Positions 33,119-42,289 of a stretch of 64,000 nt of DNA are shown piece by piece (the first letter of the stretch is position 1; the number at the start of each line of letters is the position of its first letter). Under the pieces are notes generated by a model. The model was not told where the DNA came from. It was given only the letters and a program-made list of their open reading frames with translations, and ran no database searches. The DNA is from Pseudomonadota bacterium. Lineage in GTDB: Bacteria; Pseudomonadota; Gammaproteobacteria; Steroidobacterales; Steroidobacteraceae. The stretch spans positions 1 through 64,000 of the forward strand of contig JAKBWB010000017.1 of assembly GCA_021843755.1 (NCBI GenBank). The letters run 5' to 3'. The translations under genes were made by a program, and so were the position numbers.

Positions 33119-34336
33119 TCATGCCTTGCGCCGGATCGGCGTCACCTTCGCGCCCCCGGCCTTCAGCCCGTCGAGGTAATCCGCCCACGCCTGCATCATC
33201 TTGCGGCGCTCAGGCAGGCGCTGCGCCCGGTTGTACGCGGCCCGGACCTTGTTCCGCTCCGCACGCGCGAGCTGCAGCTCGATGACATCGGGCGGGACCC
33301 CCTGCTCGTTGAGCAGCGTCGAGGCCATTGCCCGGAAGCCGTGCGCGGTCATTTCGTCTGTGGTGTACCCGAGCCGGCGCAGCGCAGCGTTCAGGGTGTT
33401 CTCGCTCATCGGCCGCTCACGCGAGCGCAGCGACGGGAACAGATAGCGGCCGTTGCCGGTGATCGCCTGCAGGCCGGTGAGAATTCCAACGGCCTGAGAG
33501 GAGAGGGGGACGATGTGCGCGTCGCCCACCTTCATGCGCTCGCCCGGGATGCGCCACTCGCCGCCCTCGAGGTCGAACTCACGCCACTCCGCACCGCGGA
33601 GCTCGCCGGGACGCACGAAGGTGAGGGGGGCGAGCTTCAGAGCCGCTGCGGTCGCTGGTTCGCCCGCGTAGCCGTCGATGGCGCGCAGCAGCTCACCGAC
33701 GCGCACCGGGTCGGTGATCGCAGCTCGATTCTTCGTCGGTACGGGAGCCAGCGCGCCGCGCAGGTCGGCGGTGATGTCGCGCTCGGCTCGGCCCGTCGCG
33801 ATGGCGTACCGGAAAATCTGCCCGCAGCGCTGCTTGGTGCGCATCGCAGTCTCGTGTCGGCCTTTGGCCTCGATGACGCGCAGGGCCGCCAGCAATTCCG
33901 GCGCCTTGATCTCGTTGATGAGCTTGTCGCCCAGGCGAGGGTAGATGAACGCCTCGAGCATCCATCGGCCTTTCTCGAGCGTCACGTCGGCGAGCTTCTT
34001 TGCTTGCAGTCCCAGCCACTCCTCGGCGACGAGTCTGAACGTGTCGGCCTGAATGACCTTGCTGCTGCGCTTTTTCTCCGAGGGGTCAGTGCCGCGAACC
34101 AGGAGCTTCTTGGCATCGTCGCGGGCCTCCCGGGCTTCCCGCAGGTTGATATCGGGGTAGGTCCCGATCGCCAGCACCTTCTCCTTGCCATGCACACGGT
34201 ACTTCAGGCGCCAGTAGCGCCCCGCTGAGCCGTCTTTCTGGGCGGACACCATAAGGTACAGCCCCCCGCCGTCAAACAGCTTGTAGGGCCTCTCACGCGG
34301 CTTGGCGGTGCGGATCTTCGTGTCGGTGAGCTTCAT
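33119..34336 (-). CDS. int: P4-type tyrosine recombinase (integrase)
   Basis: 405 residues from ATG 34336. N-terminal DUF4102 domain: LTDTKIRTAKPRERPYKL, DGGGLYLMV. A central SAM-like domain and the C-terminal catalytic domain follow. Catalytic residues seen: Arg in LTFVRPGELRG, HGFRAMASTLL (HxxR) and Tyr in RAAYNRAQ. The second His expected in LAH-ERNKVR is Arg (LARAERNKVR), a CAT to CGT type change. The gene reads away from the tRNA-Leu 3' end, 177 bp from it, the classic placement for an element integrated at a tRNA. The length is complete; activity is questionable. Confidence 0.93.
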   Translation of the reverse strand: MKLTDTKIRTAKPRERPYKLFDGGGLYLMVSAQKDGSAGRYWRLKYRVHGKEKVLAIGTYPDINLREAREARDDAKKLLVRGTDPSEKKRSSKVIQADTFRLVAEEWLGLQAKKLADVTLEKGRWMLEAFIYPRLGDKLINEIKAPELLAALRVIEAKGRHETAMRTKQRCGQIFRYAIATGRAERDITADLRGALAPVPTKNRAAITDPVRVGELLRAIDGYAGEPATAAALKLAPLTFVRPGELRGAEWREFDLEGGEWRIPGERMKVGDAHIVPLSSQAVGILTGLQAITGNGRYLFPSLRSRERPMSENTLNAALRRLGYTTDEMTAHGFRAMASTLLNEQGVPPDVIELQLARAERNKVRAAYNRAQRLPERRKMMQAWADYLDGLKAGGAKVTPIRRKA

Positions 34337-34413
34337 CAGATATCCCCTGATACCCCGAACAAGGACCCACATTGGGGAACTTGAAGCGCACGGTACCCCC
34401 GAGTATGCTCGGC

Positions 34414-34434
34414 TGTCAACGGACGGTGACGGAT
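34414..34434. repeat. Arm-type repeat, upstream copy
   Basis: TGTCAACGGACGGTG-A-CGGAT, partner of 33077-33097. It lies between the int start and the tRNA-Leu 3' end, where attL arm sites are expected. Confidence 0.55.
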
Positions 34435-34513
34435 CCTCGCGCACGGAAAGTACGGGTTCTCAGGGGATTTTCCGAGCGGTCAGGATGCTGGCGGATGGCT
34501 GCGGACGCTTGAG

Positions 34514-34850
34514 TGGTGCCCGGGGCCGGACTCGAACCGGCATGGGGTTGCCCCCGAGGGATTTTCGTACCCGCTACGGCTTTCGCCGCTGCGCGCCGCT
34601 GCGAACAACGGGCGCATTTGGGGTCTGGACTTTACCTTTACCATGCCGCACGGCGTATACCGCGTGGTTTAGGCAGGGGCCGTCAAGTCTCTACACTTTC
34701 CGCGCGCCGAGGCGGCGGCTTAGCTCGGTATTGCAGGCACCGCAACGTGCTGCTGTTCCACCGACTTTGACCCCATTCACGCCGGGCGTTTCCGCCCCGG
34801 GTGCTCAATTTCGTTAAGTCCCTTGCGTCTACCTATTCCGCCACCCGGGC
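34514..34850 (-). tRNA. tRNA-Leu (UAA) interrupted by a group I intron
   Basis: The 5' exon is 34850-34816 (35 nt: acceptor GCCCGGG, D-arm, anticodon stem AGGGA, loop CTT). The 3' exon is 34565-34514 (52 nt: AAAA, TCCCT, variable arm, T-arm GCCGG-TTCGAGT-CCGGC, acceptor CCCGGGC, A, CCA encoded). The exons join to a perfect 7-bp acceptor stem, a 5-bp anticodon stem and loop CUUAAAA, anticodon UAA. The gene is transcribed toward the integrase and its 3' end is the presumed attachment site. Confidence 0.93.
34566..34815 (-). ncRNA. Group I intron (IC3-like) in tRNA-Leu
   Basis: A 250-nt self-splicing intron candidate inserted after U34, the same position as the cyanobacterial/plastid tRNA-Leu(UAA) intron. 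It starts after U and ends in G. Conserved elements: P-like AAATTGAGC (34811-34803); a GAAA-capped P2 hairpin (GGGCG-GAAA-CGCCC); Q-like CAATACCGAGCTAAGCCG (34733-34716); R/S-like AAGTGTAGAGACTTGACGG; GGTAAAGGTAAAGTCCAGA; and a P9-like GCAGCGGCGAAAGCCGTAGC near the 3' end. These follow the order and wording of the Anabaena intron. It contains no ORF, so it depends on self-splicing and is not a homing element by itself. Confidence 0.9.
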
Positions 34851-35028
34851 AGGGAGGTTGTCCCATTCTACCTGAGGGGCCGCGAAGAAGCGGGCCGCCG
34901 TGCCGTAAAACGCCATGGGAAGCAATACGCAGGGGTACGTACCTCCCGTAGCGCTGTCCCTATGGCGATATCCAGCGGAATTAGCGAGACTTATCTCCCT
35001 TGGAGACTTTCACGGGCCGACAACCGGC

Positions 35029-35658
35029 ATGTCCGAAGCGACGCTTGAGGGCGAGAAGATTCATCTGTGGCGGGGTGAGCGGCATGTTCTGCGCGGCGTG
35101 AGTTTCAGGGTCACCGGCGGGGAGTGCCTGCAATTGACCGGGCCGAACGGGGCGGGCAAGACGAGTCTGCTGCGGACCATATGCGGCCTGTCCTATCCGG
35201 AGGCTGGAGCCATCCACTGGCGGGGCGAGGACGTGCGCCGGGATCTGCCGGCTTTCCACGCGGAAATGGCTTATCTGGGTCACGAGCCGCCGTTGAAAAT
35301 GGAGTTCACAGCGCGGGAGAATCTCACCTACTGGATTGGCGTGCGGCGGCGGTTGACTCGCGCGGAACTTGATCAGAAGCTCGAGCGGGTGGGCGGGGAG
35401 CGCTGGGCCGACCGGCCGGTGCATACGCTTTCGGCCGGGCAAAAGCGGCGCGTGGCGCTGGCGGGGCTGCTTCTCATGAACGTTCCGCTGTGGCTCCTCG
35501 ATGAGCCCACGACCCATCTCGATGTGGACGGTCAGCGATTGGTGGGCACATTGCTTGATGAGCACCTGGCCGGCGGCGGGCTCGCGGTGGCGGCCGTACA
35601 TCATGCTCTGATGATGTCGGAGCGCACCCTGCGGTCGCTGGAGCTCGGCGTTGTCTGA
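35029..35658 (+). CDS. ccmA: CcmA, ATPase of cytochrome c maturation
   Basis: 209 residues. Walker A GPNGAGKTS (38-46), signature LSAGQKRRVALAGLLL, Walker B LWLLDEPTTHLD. With CcmB, C and D it powers release of holo-CcmE from the heme-loading complex. ATG 35029 fits the family N-terminus; an upstream in-frame extension to 34915 lacks homology. It is the first gene of ccmABCDEFGHI. The CcmB start lies inside the last codons. Confidence 0.94.
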   Translation: MSEATLEGEKIHLWRGERHVLRGVSFRVTGGECLQLTGPNGAGKTSLLRTICGLSYPEAGAIHWRGEDVRRDLPAFHAEMAYLGHEPPLKMEFTARENLTYWIGVRRRLTRAELDQKLERVGGERWADRPVHTLSAGQKRRVALAGLLLMNVPLWLLDEPTTHLDVDGQRLVGTLLDEHLAGGGLAVAAVHHALMMSERTLRSLELGVV

Positions 35659-36388
35659 GGTCAGCGCATGGTCCGCCGCGCTACCGGCCGCGGTACCCGA
35701 GCGCAGAGCGGCGCCCTCGGCACTGGCCGTGGCTCGCCTGATGCTCGAACGGGATCTTCGCCTGGCGTTCCGCAAGGCGAGCCAACTCATCCAGCCCCTG
35801 GCGTTCTTCGTCATCGTGACGACGCTCTTTCCGCTGGCGGTCACACCCAGTCTCCCCGAGCTGCGCCGCATCGCCCCCGGGGTGGTGTGGGCGGCGGCCC
35901 TGCTGTCCTCGCTCCTGGCGCTCGAATTCCTGTTCCGCGATGACGCCCAGGACGGCACGCTCGAGCAGTTCGCGCTCTCGGGCCGGGCACTGACCGGGTT
36001 GCTGGTGGCCAAGACCGCTGCGCATTGGCTGCTCACCGGGCTGCCGCTCGCGTTGATGGCGCCGATCGCCGGGGCGGCCCTCGGTGTACCGCAGGCCGCG
36101 ATGCCCGGCATCCTGGCTTCGGTCGGCCTCGGAACGGTGACGCTGAGCCTGATCGGCGCGGTCGGAGCGGCGCTCACGATGGGACTGCGCCGCTCAGGTG
36201 CGCTGCTGTCGCTGTTGACGCTGCCGCTGGTGATCCCGGTGTTGATTTTCGGAGCGCGCGCCACGCAGCTCGCGATCAAGGGCGAATCCTATTCGGCGCC
36301 GCTGCTGTTGCTCGCGGCGCTCGCCGTGCTCGCCACGACCCTCGCGCCGCTCGCGGCCACCGCGGCGGTGCACATCAATCTCGAGTGA
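35651..36388 (+). CDS. ccmB: CcmB, membrane subunit of the heme-release ABC complex
   Basis: 245 residues with six membrane helices. Family blocks: RDLRLAFRKASQLIQPLAFF, PGVVWAAALLSSLLALEFLF and DGTLEQFALS. The start is TTG 35651, overlapping ccmA by 8 nt with GGAG 8 nt upstream; no better ATG precedes the conserved part. It pairs with CcmA in the inner membrane. Confidence 0.93.
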   Translation: MSEVSAWSAALPAAVPERRAAPSALAVARLMLERDLRLAFRKASQLIQPLAFFVIVTTLFPLAVTPSLPELRRIAPGVVWAAALLSSLLALEFLFRDDAQDGTLEQFALSGRALTGLLVAKTAAHWLLTGLPLALMAPIAGAALGVPQAAMPGILASVGLGTVTLSLIGAVGAALTMGLRRSGALLSLLTLPLVIPVLIFGARATQLAIKGESYSAPLLLLAALAVLATTLAPLAATAAVHINLE

Positions 36389-36401
36389 GACTCGCACCGC
36401 A

Positions 36402-37136
36402 ATGACCTGGACTTGGTTTCATCGTCTGGCCTCGCCGCCGTACCTATACCGGACCGCTGGCCGCCTGATCGCCTGGTTCGCCTGGCCGGCCGCGATCCTG
36501 ATCGTCGCGGGCCTGATCGGCGGGTTGTGGCTGGCGCCTCCGGACTACCAGCAGGGCGATGCATATCGAATCATCTACGTGCATGCGCCGAGCGCCTGGT
36601 TGTCGTTGATGATGTACGGGGTCATGGGGATTGCCGGGGGCATCGGCCTGATCTGGCGGATAAAGGCGGCACATGCGCTCGCGGCGAGCGCCGCTCCGAT
36701 CGGCGCCTCTTTCGCCCTGGTGACCTTGGTGACCGGCTCGCTCTGGGGCAAACCGATGTGGGGAACGTACTGGGCGTGGGATCCGCGGCTGACCTCGGAG
36801 CTGTTCTTGTTGCTGCTCTACCTGGGGTACATGGGCCTGCGGGCCGCATTCGAGGATTTGCAGCGCGCCGACCGCGCCAGCGCCGTGCTGGCGGTGGTCG
36901 GACTGGTCGATGTTCCGATCGTGCATTACTCGGTCGTCTGGTGGAATTCCCTGCACCAGGGGGCGCTGGTGTTCATCGGCAGAAAGGCGATGCCGCCCTC
37001 GATGCTGATTCCGTTGATGGTGATGTTTCTGGGGTTCACGCTCTACAGCGTGGCCGTGCTGTTGATGCGCCTTCGTGCCGAGGTGCTCAACCGGGAGCGC
37101 ACCGCACGCTGGGTGCGGGAGGAGGTGGGAGCATGA
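36402..37136 (+). CDS. ccmC: CcmC, heme handling protein
   Basis: 244 residues, six membrane helices, with the Trp-rich WWD-type loop GKPMWGTYWAWDPRLTSE and flanking His residues (VHAPSAW, VHYSVVWWNSLHQG) that hold heme. It loads heme onto CcmE in the periplasm. The stop overlaps the ccmD start (ATGA). Confidence 0.95.
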   Translation: MTWTWFHRLASPPYLYRTAGRLIAWFAWPAAILIVAGLIGGLWLAPPDYQQGDAYRIIYVHAPSAWLSLMMYGVMGIAGGIGLIWRIKAAHALAASAAPIGASFALVTLVTGSLWGKPMWGTYWAWDPRLTSELFLLLLYLGYMGLRAAFEDLQRADRASAVLAVVGLVDVPIVHYSVVWWNSLHQGALVFIGRKAMPPSMLIPLMVMFLGFTLYSVAVLLMRLRAEVLNRERTARWVREEVGA

Positions 37137-41936: not shown

Positions 41937-42138
41937 GGACGGTGGACCCGCCGTCACGCTGAACGGTGACGCCGGGGTCTCGCGGCGGCCCGCGCTCGAG
42001 GACTCGAGTGCGAGCAATGGGAAGGCAGAGCGCCGGTGTCCTCGGGGCACGCGGTGGGAGCACGTTTGTTGCCTTGCTCGGGAACGCCCGCGCGGCGGCG
42101 TTGACCCGCGTTGATTCACGTACTATCGTGTGCGCATG

Positions 42139-42238
42139 ACTAGGGGAGCCCCGTCAAGGGGCTGAGAGGCCGACGGCGCCCGCGGGCGCGGCGCGGCGAC
42201 CCTTTGAACCTGATCCAGTTTATGCTGGCGTAGGAAAG
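42139..42238 (+). promoter_or_regulatory. TPP riboswitch (THI element)
   Basis: Contains the conserved core: GGGGCTGAGAGG in the left half and ACCCTTTGAACCTGATC, then CAGTTTATGCTGGCGTAGG in the right half. Between them is a variable GC-rich P3 arm. It stands 73 bp before thiC. It binds thiamine pyrophosphate and should reduce thi expression when TPP is plentiful. Since thiC has its own AAGGAG, control could be by ribosome-site occlusion or termination; no poly-U terminator is obvious. Confidence 0.97.
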
Positions 42239-42289
42239 TTTCGGCTCTCGCCTTTCTCGCGCCGGCGACTCTGGGTCTTCTGCGGTTGA

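What the first reader, a model, noticed from the sequence alone, without database searches (positions are those of the whole stretch)
34514..34850. Group I intron in a proteobacterial tRNA-Leu(UAA) gene
The tRNA-Leu gene is split after U34 by a 250-nt insert starting after U and ending in G. Exons rejoin to perfect acceptor and anticodon stems. The insert reproduces the ordered core blocks of the cyanobacterial/plastid tRNA-Leu intron (AAATTGAGC, CCGAGCTAAGCCG, GTGTAGAGAC, AAAGTCCAGA, GCGAAAGC). Group I introns in proteobacterial tRNAs are known for tRNA-Ile and tRNA-Arg; finding the tRNA-Leu type at the same site raises the question of horizontal transfer or great age.
Basis: partly seen in the sequence, partly recalled or inferred. 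Interest (0 to 1): 0.85.

Follow-up and report, generated by a model that had tools for sequence, protein, structure and literature searches.

The report
Self-splicing intron in bacterial leucine tRNA
A leucine transfer-RNA gene of a gammaproteobacterium is interrupted by a group I (ribozyme-type) intron that must be cut out before the tRNA can work; it is one member of a widespread, mostly unannotated family, and some of its relatives carry the kind of enzyme gene that lets such introns spread.

Summary
On the minus strand, tRNA-Leu(UAA) (34850-34514) is split after U34 by a 250-nt insert (34815-34566). Joined exons fold as a tRNA-Leu(UAA), and intact alleles exist in sister species. The insert is a group I intron of the IC3 kind: its P3-P7 core covaries across 43 relatives (96.9% standard pairs; 20 of 28 pairs with double changes; 0 of 500 shuffles as high). 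Rfam's general group I model misses it; a sub-threshold LOOT RNA match is probably coincidence. No intact copy was found in the 96.8% complete genome, and its tRNA-Leu(CAA) has a second intron, so both UUR decoders seem to need splicing. Apparently undescribed (open-access searches only): introns in tRNA-Leu(CAA) with C-G instead of U-G at the splice site, HNH endonuclease genes in 13 relatives' introns, and an intron-bearing tRNA-Leu on about 1,280 plasmid records. Splicing is inferred, not shown. The window's intron is a new member of a known kind.

The parts
34514..34850 (-). tRNA-Leu(UAA) gene with intron (precursor 337 nt, CCA encoded)
34816..34850 (-). 5' exon, ends C32 U33 U34
   Evidence: CTT| in 119 of 119 distinct UAA introns
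34566..34815 (-). group IC3 intron, 250 nt, ends in G
   Evidence: (127.6 bits with model R1)
34514..34565 (-). 3' exon (A35 onward)
   Evidence: identical in intronless sister species
34803..34808 (-). internal guide TTGAGC; GAG pairs with exon CUU (U34-G wobble at the splice site)
34778..34803 (-). P2 hairpin with GAAA loop
   Evidence: and sequence; inner P2 pairs are only partly kept in relatives
34769..34774 (-). P3 5' strand GGGGTC
   Evidence: 100% paired across 43 rows, 4 of 6 pairs change on both sides
34760..34764 (-). P4 5' strand TCGGT
   Evidence: 98.6% paired
34725..34729 (-). P4 3' strand ACCGA (element Q)
34700..34719 (-). P6 hairpin; the place where relatives carry HNH genes
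   Evidence: base of P6 95.9% paired; HNH ORFs between Q and R
34685..34689 (-). P7 5' strand GACTT (element R; guanosine-binding helix)
   Evidence: 100% paired, 3 of 5 pairs change on both sides
34676..34681 (-). P3 3' strand GGCCCC
34639..34675 (-). P8 hairpin with CCUAA/AUGG, resembling the 11-nt GAAA-loop receptor; part of the weak LOOT match
   Evidence: outer P8 97.7%, inner P8 81.4% paired; receptor identity recalled
34628..34632 (-). P7 3' strand AAGTC (element S)
34576..34616 (-). P9.1 and P9 hairpins (P9 with GAAA loop)
   Evidence: P9 18 of 18 rows; outer P9.1 16-18 of 18; inner P9.1 not kept

Best explanation
This is a functional group I intron of subgroup IC3 that removes itself from the precursor of tRNA-Leu(UAA). 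Inferred steps: a guanosine bound at P7 attacks after U34, held by the U-G wobble of P1 (exon CUU with guide GAG); the freed exon then attacks after the terminal intron G, joining U34 to A35 and giving a normal tRNA-Leu(UAA). Shown here: exact boundaries, the P1-P9 anatomy, a covarying P3/P7 core, no intact copy detected in the genome, intact alleles in sister species. Splicing is inferred from the anatomy and from the need for a UUA-reading tRNA. The intron has no endonuclease frame; relatives at the same site carry HNH genes in P6, so it is best read as a resident, ORF-less descendant of a lineage that spreads or spread by homing (inferred).
For: Joined exons are a tRNA-Leu(taa). Core pairs on 43 relatives: 96.9% standard, 253 double-change cells against 86.7 shuffled, 0 of 500 shuffles as high. 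Among 139 distinct introns, R was located in 138, and in 135 of these the P7 5' strand is met by its exact complement, in six different combinations. R1 scores the window 127.6 bits with no other window match at E up to 1. No intronless UAA or CAA tRNA-Leu by pattern in the own genome. All 139 distinct introns end in G and keep guide GAG. HNH ORFs in open frames in 13 of 16 long introns, broken remains in the other three.
Against: Rfam RF00028 does not match it, neither at gathering score nor at E up to 10 in the local search. No transcript data. The assembly is 96.8% complete, so an intact copy could be missing. No sigma-70-like promoter in the scan of 34400-35050. R1 includes the window row and the structure was drawn from these sequences, so scores and pairing percentage lean towards it; the double changes are the stronger support. 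Three of 138 introns lack an exact P7 complement.
Confidence: 0.92

Rival explanations
1. The intron is a dead relic: a tRNA-Leu(UAA) pseudogene, with the function supplied by another gene.
For: UUA is rare: 17 of 1,546 leucine codons in 36 mechanical ORFs of the window. The assembly is not closed.
Against: No intact copy found. The split gene is kept in 20 of 36 same-genus genomes (two of them cut by contig ends), 5 of 36 are intronless, in 11 of 36 neither was found (my reading). 14 of the 36 ORFs use UUA (ORFs mechanical, some surely spurious).
Confidence: 0.04
2. The 3' half is a LOOT RNA (RF03000), a separate structured RNA overlapping the tRNA.
For: cmscan match 30.5 bits, E 6e-4, at 34557-34675; a weaker match (24.1 bits) at the same gene of a sister species.
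Against: Below the gathering score (46.4); the middle of the LOOT model is not aligned and its last hairpin falls on the 3' exon. Over the cut-off in 0 of 60 relatives, 0 of 30 intron-bearing genomes and 0 of 369 class genomes. The shared part is the P8 receptor-like loop and a GAAA hairpin; that these are common in many RNAs is recalled.
Confidence: 0.03
3. The intron entered recently from cyanobacteria or plastids.
For: Same insertion site; R1 scores the cyanobacterial intron L113 at 102.1 bits.
Against: Nearest relatives are introns of the same genus and Steroidobacteraceae (20-row clade, 100/95); the one cyanobacterial row lies on a long branch elsewhere and has P7 GACUC rather than GACUU. 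One row is thin evidence.
Confidence: 0.05
4. The own-genome tRNA-Leu(CAA) intron is a local copy of the tRNA-Leu(UAA) intron.
For: Same genome, same site.
Against: AU test rejects the genus's UAA and CAA introns as one clade (23 rows, p 0.0075), while one clade of all 15 CAA rows is not rejected (p 0.67) (groups were named after the tree was seen). CAA introns share P7 GAGCA/UGCUC with UAA introns of other hosts.
Confidence: 0.03

Closest known systems
tRNA-Leu(UAA) group I (IC3) intron of cyanobacteria and plastids
   Same: Insertion site after U34, IC3-type anatomy, U-G splice-site pair; R1 scores the one example I had (L113) at 102.1 bits
   Different: P7 sequence (GACUC in L113, GACUU here), peripheral helices, host clade; some relatives of the window intron carry HNH genes. 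That cyanobacterial tRNA-Leu introns lack such genes is recalled, not tested.
Putative tRNA-Leu-TAA (and tRNA-Arg-TCT) introns of Beggiatoa BOGUAY and Ca. Thiomargarita nelsonii (PMC4853749, passages seen)
   Same: Gammaproteobacterial hosts, same tRNA, called putative group I introns
   Different: There the type and structure were not determined; here the fold is supported by covariation and the family is surveyed
Azoarcus tRNA-Ile(CAU) IC3 intron (recalled) and tRNA-Ile2 introns of Acidovorax and Burkholderia (PMC8450103, passages seen)
   Same: IC3 core, proteobacterial hosts, anticodon-loop site
   Different: Other tRNA, inserted after CAU instead of after U34; R1 scores two such introns at only 44-46 bits

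Membership tests
Group I intron (subgroup IC3) | P3/P7 pseudoknot core with P4-P6 | tested here: met
   P3 and P7 100% paired on 43 rows, with double changes in both
Group I intron (subgroup IC3) | U-G wobble at the 5' splice site within P1 | tested here: met
   CTT/GAG in 119 of 119 distinct UAA introns; the 20 CAA introns of the same count have CTC/GAG, i.e. C-G
Group I intron (subgroup IC3) | Intron ends in G | tested here: met
   139 of 139; note that the extraction script asked for a G before the 3' exon, so this is partly by construction; the boundary is confirmed for the window by intronless alleles
Group I intron (subgroup IC3) | Guanosine-binding G-C pair in P7 | tested here: met
   first P7 pair G-C in 43 of 43; its role is established knowledge, recalled
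Group I intron (subgroup IC3) | Match to Rfam Intron_gpI (RF00028) at gathering score | tested here: not met
   A weak test: it passed its cut-off in only 10 of 30 genomes known to hold such introns (30 of the 120 scan loci given), some of those hits being other introns; PMC6125680 (passages) expected no single alignment to capture group I diversity
Group I intron (subgroup IC3) | Self-splicing with guanosine | not testable with these tools
   needs RNA work
Cyanobacterial/plastid tRNA-Leu intron lineage | Branches with cyanobacterial tRNA-Leu introns | tested here: inconclusive
   a single cyanobacterial row on a long branch, not near the window
LOOT RNA (RF03000) | Match at gathering score 46.4 | tested here: not met
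   30.5 bits
Homing (HNH-bearing) group I intron | Endonuclease gene inside the intron | tested here: not met
   the window intron is 250 nt; the only ORF of 120 codons or more across it is a plus-strand frame that runs through the whole tRNA. Present in relatives

The most novel reading that the evidence does not exclude
Proteobacterial tRNA-Leu introns are one mobile IC3 lineage that spreads by HNH-driven homing into the anticodon loop, has hopped from tRNA-Leu(UAA) into tRNA-Leu(CAA), accepting a C-G pair where (as recalled) nearly all group I introns use U-G, and into tRNA-Ser(UGA), and has reached enterobacterial plasmids. In the window's host both UUR-decoding tRNAs depend on such ribozymes, so splicing could limit or gate translation of UUA and UUG codons.
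Probability: 0.35. Interest if true: 0.72.

Novelty: new member of a known kind. Interest (0 to 1): 0.5.

Why it matters
The tRNA-Leu(UAA) intron is the textbook case of an ancient intron shared by cyanobacteria and chloroplasts (recalled). Finding the same site filled by IC3 introns across many Beta- and Gammaproteobacteria, and in records titled Acidobacteriota, Bacilli and Planctomycetia, some with HNH genes, turns 'ancient or transferred' into a question that dense trees and homing assays can answer. It also shows that the tRNA and Rfam searches run here miss such genes, in the window and in an unannotated plasmid copy whose sequence is in about a ninth of the complete E. coli genomes searched.

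Tried and rejected
LOOT RNA as the identity of the 3' half: followed up and dropped as probable coincidence of a receptor-like loop and GNRA hairpins. Relic hypothesis: no intact copy found. Local copying between the genome's two tRNA-Leu introns: rejected by AU test. ARAGORN's labels for several intron-bearing genes are wrong: genes it called tRNA-Gln(ctg) or tRNA-Arg(ccg) have the loop of a CAU anticodon in 12 of 13 loci checked (L172, L176, L177, L240-L246, L248, L249; not L247); L237 is tRNA-Thr(UGU) and L171 probably tRNA-Asn(GUU) by eye; it calls the plasmid gene tRNA-Stop(tta) because it places the intron a few bases off. A 31-bp match in own contig C24 has no tRNA. A first test for the CAU loop was too strict and found nothing, then redone. 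The first core extraction mis-cut some rows and was redone. The P8 and inner P5/P6 entries were mis-indexed or poorly kept and are not used. A second copy of the tRNA end, as partner site of the neighbouring integrase, was sought and not found.

Rows dropped: of the 120 scan loci the script did not parse L058, L095 and L113; by eye L058 and L113 are complete split genes and L095 ends at the contig edge inside the intron. From the tree: 9 introns whose landmarks the script missed, all but three (L188, L190, L195) of the loci L181-L210, then near-copies, leaving 116 of 159. Earlier counts (141 introns, 143) held duplicates; one search recounts distinct introns.

Full report
What is there. On the minus strand at 34850-34514 lies a tRNA-Leu(UAA) gene interrupted after U34 by 250 nt. 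The tRNA finder as offered reports nothing in the window; allowing introns, on locus L003 (same DNA), it finds tRNA-Leu(taa). Joined exons give an 87-base tRNA with complete acceptor, D, anticodon, variable and T arms. Among 36 same-genus relatives, by my reading of the blast rows, 20 have the split gene (two cut by contig ends), 5 have an intronless one (G003, G010, G014, G017, G022), and in 11 neither was found (8 of these 11 are under 90% complete).

Structure. I aligned the P3-to-P7 core of 43 of the relatives (A3) and counted a hand-drawn structure with the P3/P7 pseudoknot: 96.9% of 1,202 cells form standard pairs, 20 of 28 pairs change on both sides, 253 double-change cells against a shuffled mean of 86.7, 0 of 500 shuffles as high on any of the five measures; sliding the partners by 1-3 columns drops pairing to 27-48%. 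The weakest helix is inner P8 (81.4%). The structure was drawn from the same sequences, which favours the pairing percentage most; and related sequences can beat shuffles without structure, but on the counts of double-changed pairs rarely (tool note). P7, the guanosine-binding helix, is GACTT/AAGTC (window type) in 61, GAGCA/TGCTC in 61, GACTA/TAGTC in 10 and three further combinations in one each: exact complements in 135 of 138 distinct introns with R located; 3 of 138 are not exact, and in L065 R was not found. The anatomy (P1 with guide GAG, P2 with GAAA loop, P3-P8, P9 with GAAA loop, short P5) fits subgroup IC3; the subgroup name rests on recalled knowledge. R1, a covariance model from A3, finds one place in the window, 127.6 bits.

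What annotation says. Rfam's Intron_gpI does not match. This is a limit of that model: in 30 genomes known to hold such introns (30 of the 120 scan loci) it had any match at E up to 0.1 in 20 and reached its cut-off in 10, in part through other introns, and PMC6125680 (passages) expected no single alignment to capture the diversity. The only other Rfam signals at the locus are a sub-threshold LOOT match, which I read as shared loop and hairpin motifs, and a weak tRNA-Sec match.

Own genome. R1 finds a second intron at C51:26546-26688, in tRNA-Leu(CAA), 229 nt (L195). A pattern for intronless UAA or CAA tRNA-Leu has no match in the genome. As far as this 96.8% complete assembly shows, both tRNAs that read UUA and UUG need splicing. 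In 36 mechanically chosen ORFs of the window UUA is 17 and UUG 168 of 1,546 leucine codons, and 14 of 36 ORFs hold UUA.

Family. The script parsed 117 of 120 as split tRNA-Leu genes, with 116 distinct introns, 102 UAA and 14 CAA. By record title most are Beta- or Gammaproteobacteria, among them Achromobacter, Stutzerimonas, Pseudomonas jinjuensis, Rhodanobacter, Lysobacter, Cupriavidus, Burkholderia and Nitrosovibrio. Titles outside these include four Bacilli, two Acidobacteriota, and one each of Planctomycetia, Cyanobacteria, Desulfobulbus, Chloroflexi and Mycobacterium; most of these are metagenome bins and some may be misassigned. The pattern left out the usual cyanobacterial stem on purpose, so it says nothing on their share. 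In an even sample of the class, 68 of 369 genomes have an R1 match at E <= 1e-4 (the own genome is in that list). Of its 29 fetched loci other than the own genome (the best-scoring), 20 are tRNA-Leu(UAA), 1 tRNA-Leu(CAA), 6 other tRNAs (3 Arg(CCU), 1 Arg(UCU), Ser(UGA), Thr(UGU)) and 2 unresolved (partly by eye). Of 10 weaker matches fetched, 9 are in genes with a CAU anticodon loop, the known tRNA-Ile type.

tRNA-Leu(CAA). The 20 distinct CAA introns of the first set, and all 33 when those are added, have exon CTC; the guide is GAG in the 20 counted, so the splice-site pair is C-G, against U-G in all 119 distinct UAA introns. In the tree of 116 rows (bootstrap not settled, many open forks) 14 of 15 CAA rows form a clade (100/95) inside the GAGCA-type introns, whose other members sit in tRNA-Leu(UAA). 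Holding all 15 CAA together is not rejected (p 0.67, and the held tree scored higher); holding the genus's own UAA and CAA introns together is rejected (p 0.0075) (groups named after seeing the tree). So the two introns of the window's genome most likely have separate origins.

Homing. Sixteen introns are longer than 460 nt. In 13 of 16 an HNH-type ORF lies in one open frame of 154-200 codons stop to stop; in L041 (window's genus), L127 and L163 it is broken. Eleven of the 13 are antisense (10 from records titled as proteobacteria, 1 Acidobacteriota), two sense (Bacilli; L060 has an ATG only near the end of its frame). They fill the space between Q and R, i.e. P6; in L041 and L119 the frame runs on past Q. 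Pfam called HNH in the three proteins I tested (from L074, L060, L041); the L074 protein has relatives in 235 phage records. This supports homing as the mode of spread, but nothing here tests cleavage. The window's intron has no such gene.

Evolution. The window intron lies in a 20-row clade (100/95): 14 rows of its genus, one of its family, Steroidobacter, Peristeroidobacter and another Steroidobacteraceae bacterium, and two less well named rows. This places the host near Steroidobacteraceae; a same-genus genome is titled Gammaproteobacteria bacterium (L078). Vertical descent there is inferred, as I made no host tree.

What is in print. [quoted passage not shown] PMC4033280 (passages) lists bacterial tRNA introns in cyanobacteria and few alpha- and betaproteobacteria; PMC8450103 (passages) notes tRNA-Ile2 introns in Acidovorax and Burkholderia; PMC3984707 (passages) is a general review; PMC11835236 (passages) is a group I database paper. 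Ten searches of the open-access library listed, as far as titles and abstract starts show, nothing on tRNA-Leu(CAA) introns, HNH-bearing tRNA-Leu introns or the plasmid gene; subscription papers were not searched and no paper was read whole.

Verdict. Real, essential-looking and very probably self-splicing; the window's intron itself is a new member of a known kind. The wider pattern is the more interesting part.

Noticed in passing
L250:1493-1795 (plasmid pKlebA1, CP041648.1 4495-4797); L251, L252, L253: A complete-looking tRNA-Leu(UAA) gene with its own IC3 intron (R1 122.9 bits in L250; anticodon by eye, ARAGORN says tRNA-Stop(tta)) lies near tmrB and aac(3)-IId in three of the four records looked at. 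1,280 of 72,556 plasmid records match (1,257 cover at least 80%), and 624 of 5,426 complete E. coli genomes hold it at 80% cover or more; three sequences were read in full. In the RefSeq record looked at (L253) no feature is annotated there. Described only.
   Followed up: partly
window 33122-34333 (-): Tyrosine integrase (arm-binding, central and catalytic domains) starting 180 bases beyond the 3' end of the tRNA-Leu gene, as in islands that integrate at tRNA 3' ends; no second copy of the 3' exon of 13 bases or more in the window.
   Followed up: partly
L218:1395-1725 (-): IC3 intron at the U34 site of a tRNA-Ser(UGA) gene, R1 130.8 bits (anticodon by eye, ARAGORN agrees).
   Followed up: partly
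L237:1410-1730 (-): IC3-like intron in tRNA-Thr(UGU) by eye, labelled tRNA-Tyr by ARAGORN, R1 81.5 bits.
   Followed up: partly
L209, L210, L239; L224, L231, L232; L171: Introns in tRNA-Arg(UCU), tRNA-Arg(CCU) and probably tRNA-Asn(GUU) genes.
   Followed up: no
L022 (334-nt intron) and L133 (332-nt intron): Intermediate-length inserts before R in close relatives of the window intron, possibly scars of lost HNH genes.
   Followed up: no
window 42132-42253 (+): TPP riboswitch, 71.2 bits.
   Followed up: no
window 34915-37136 (+): ORFs that look like cytochrome c maturation genes ccmA, ccmB, ccmC just upstream of the tRNA on the other strand (names by eye).
   Followed up: no
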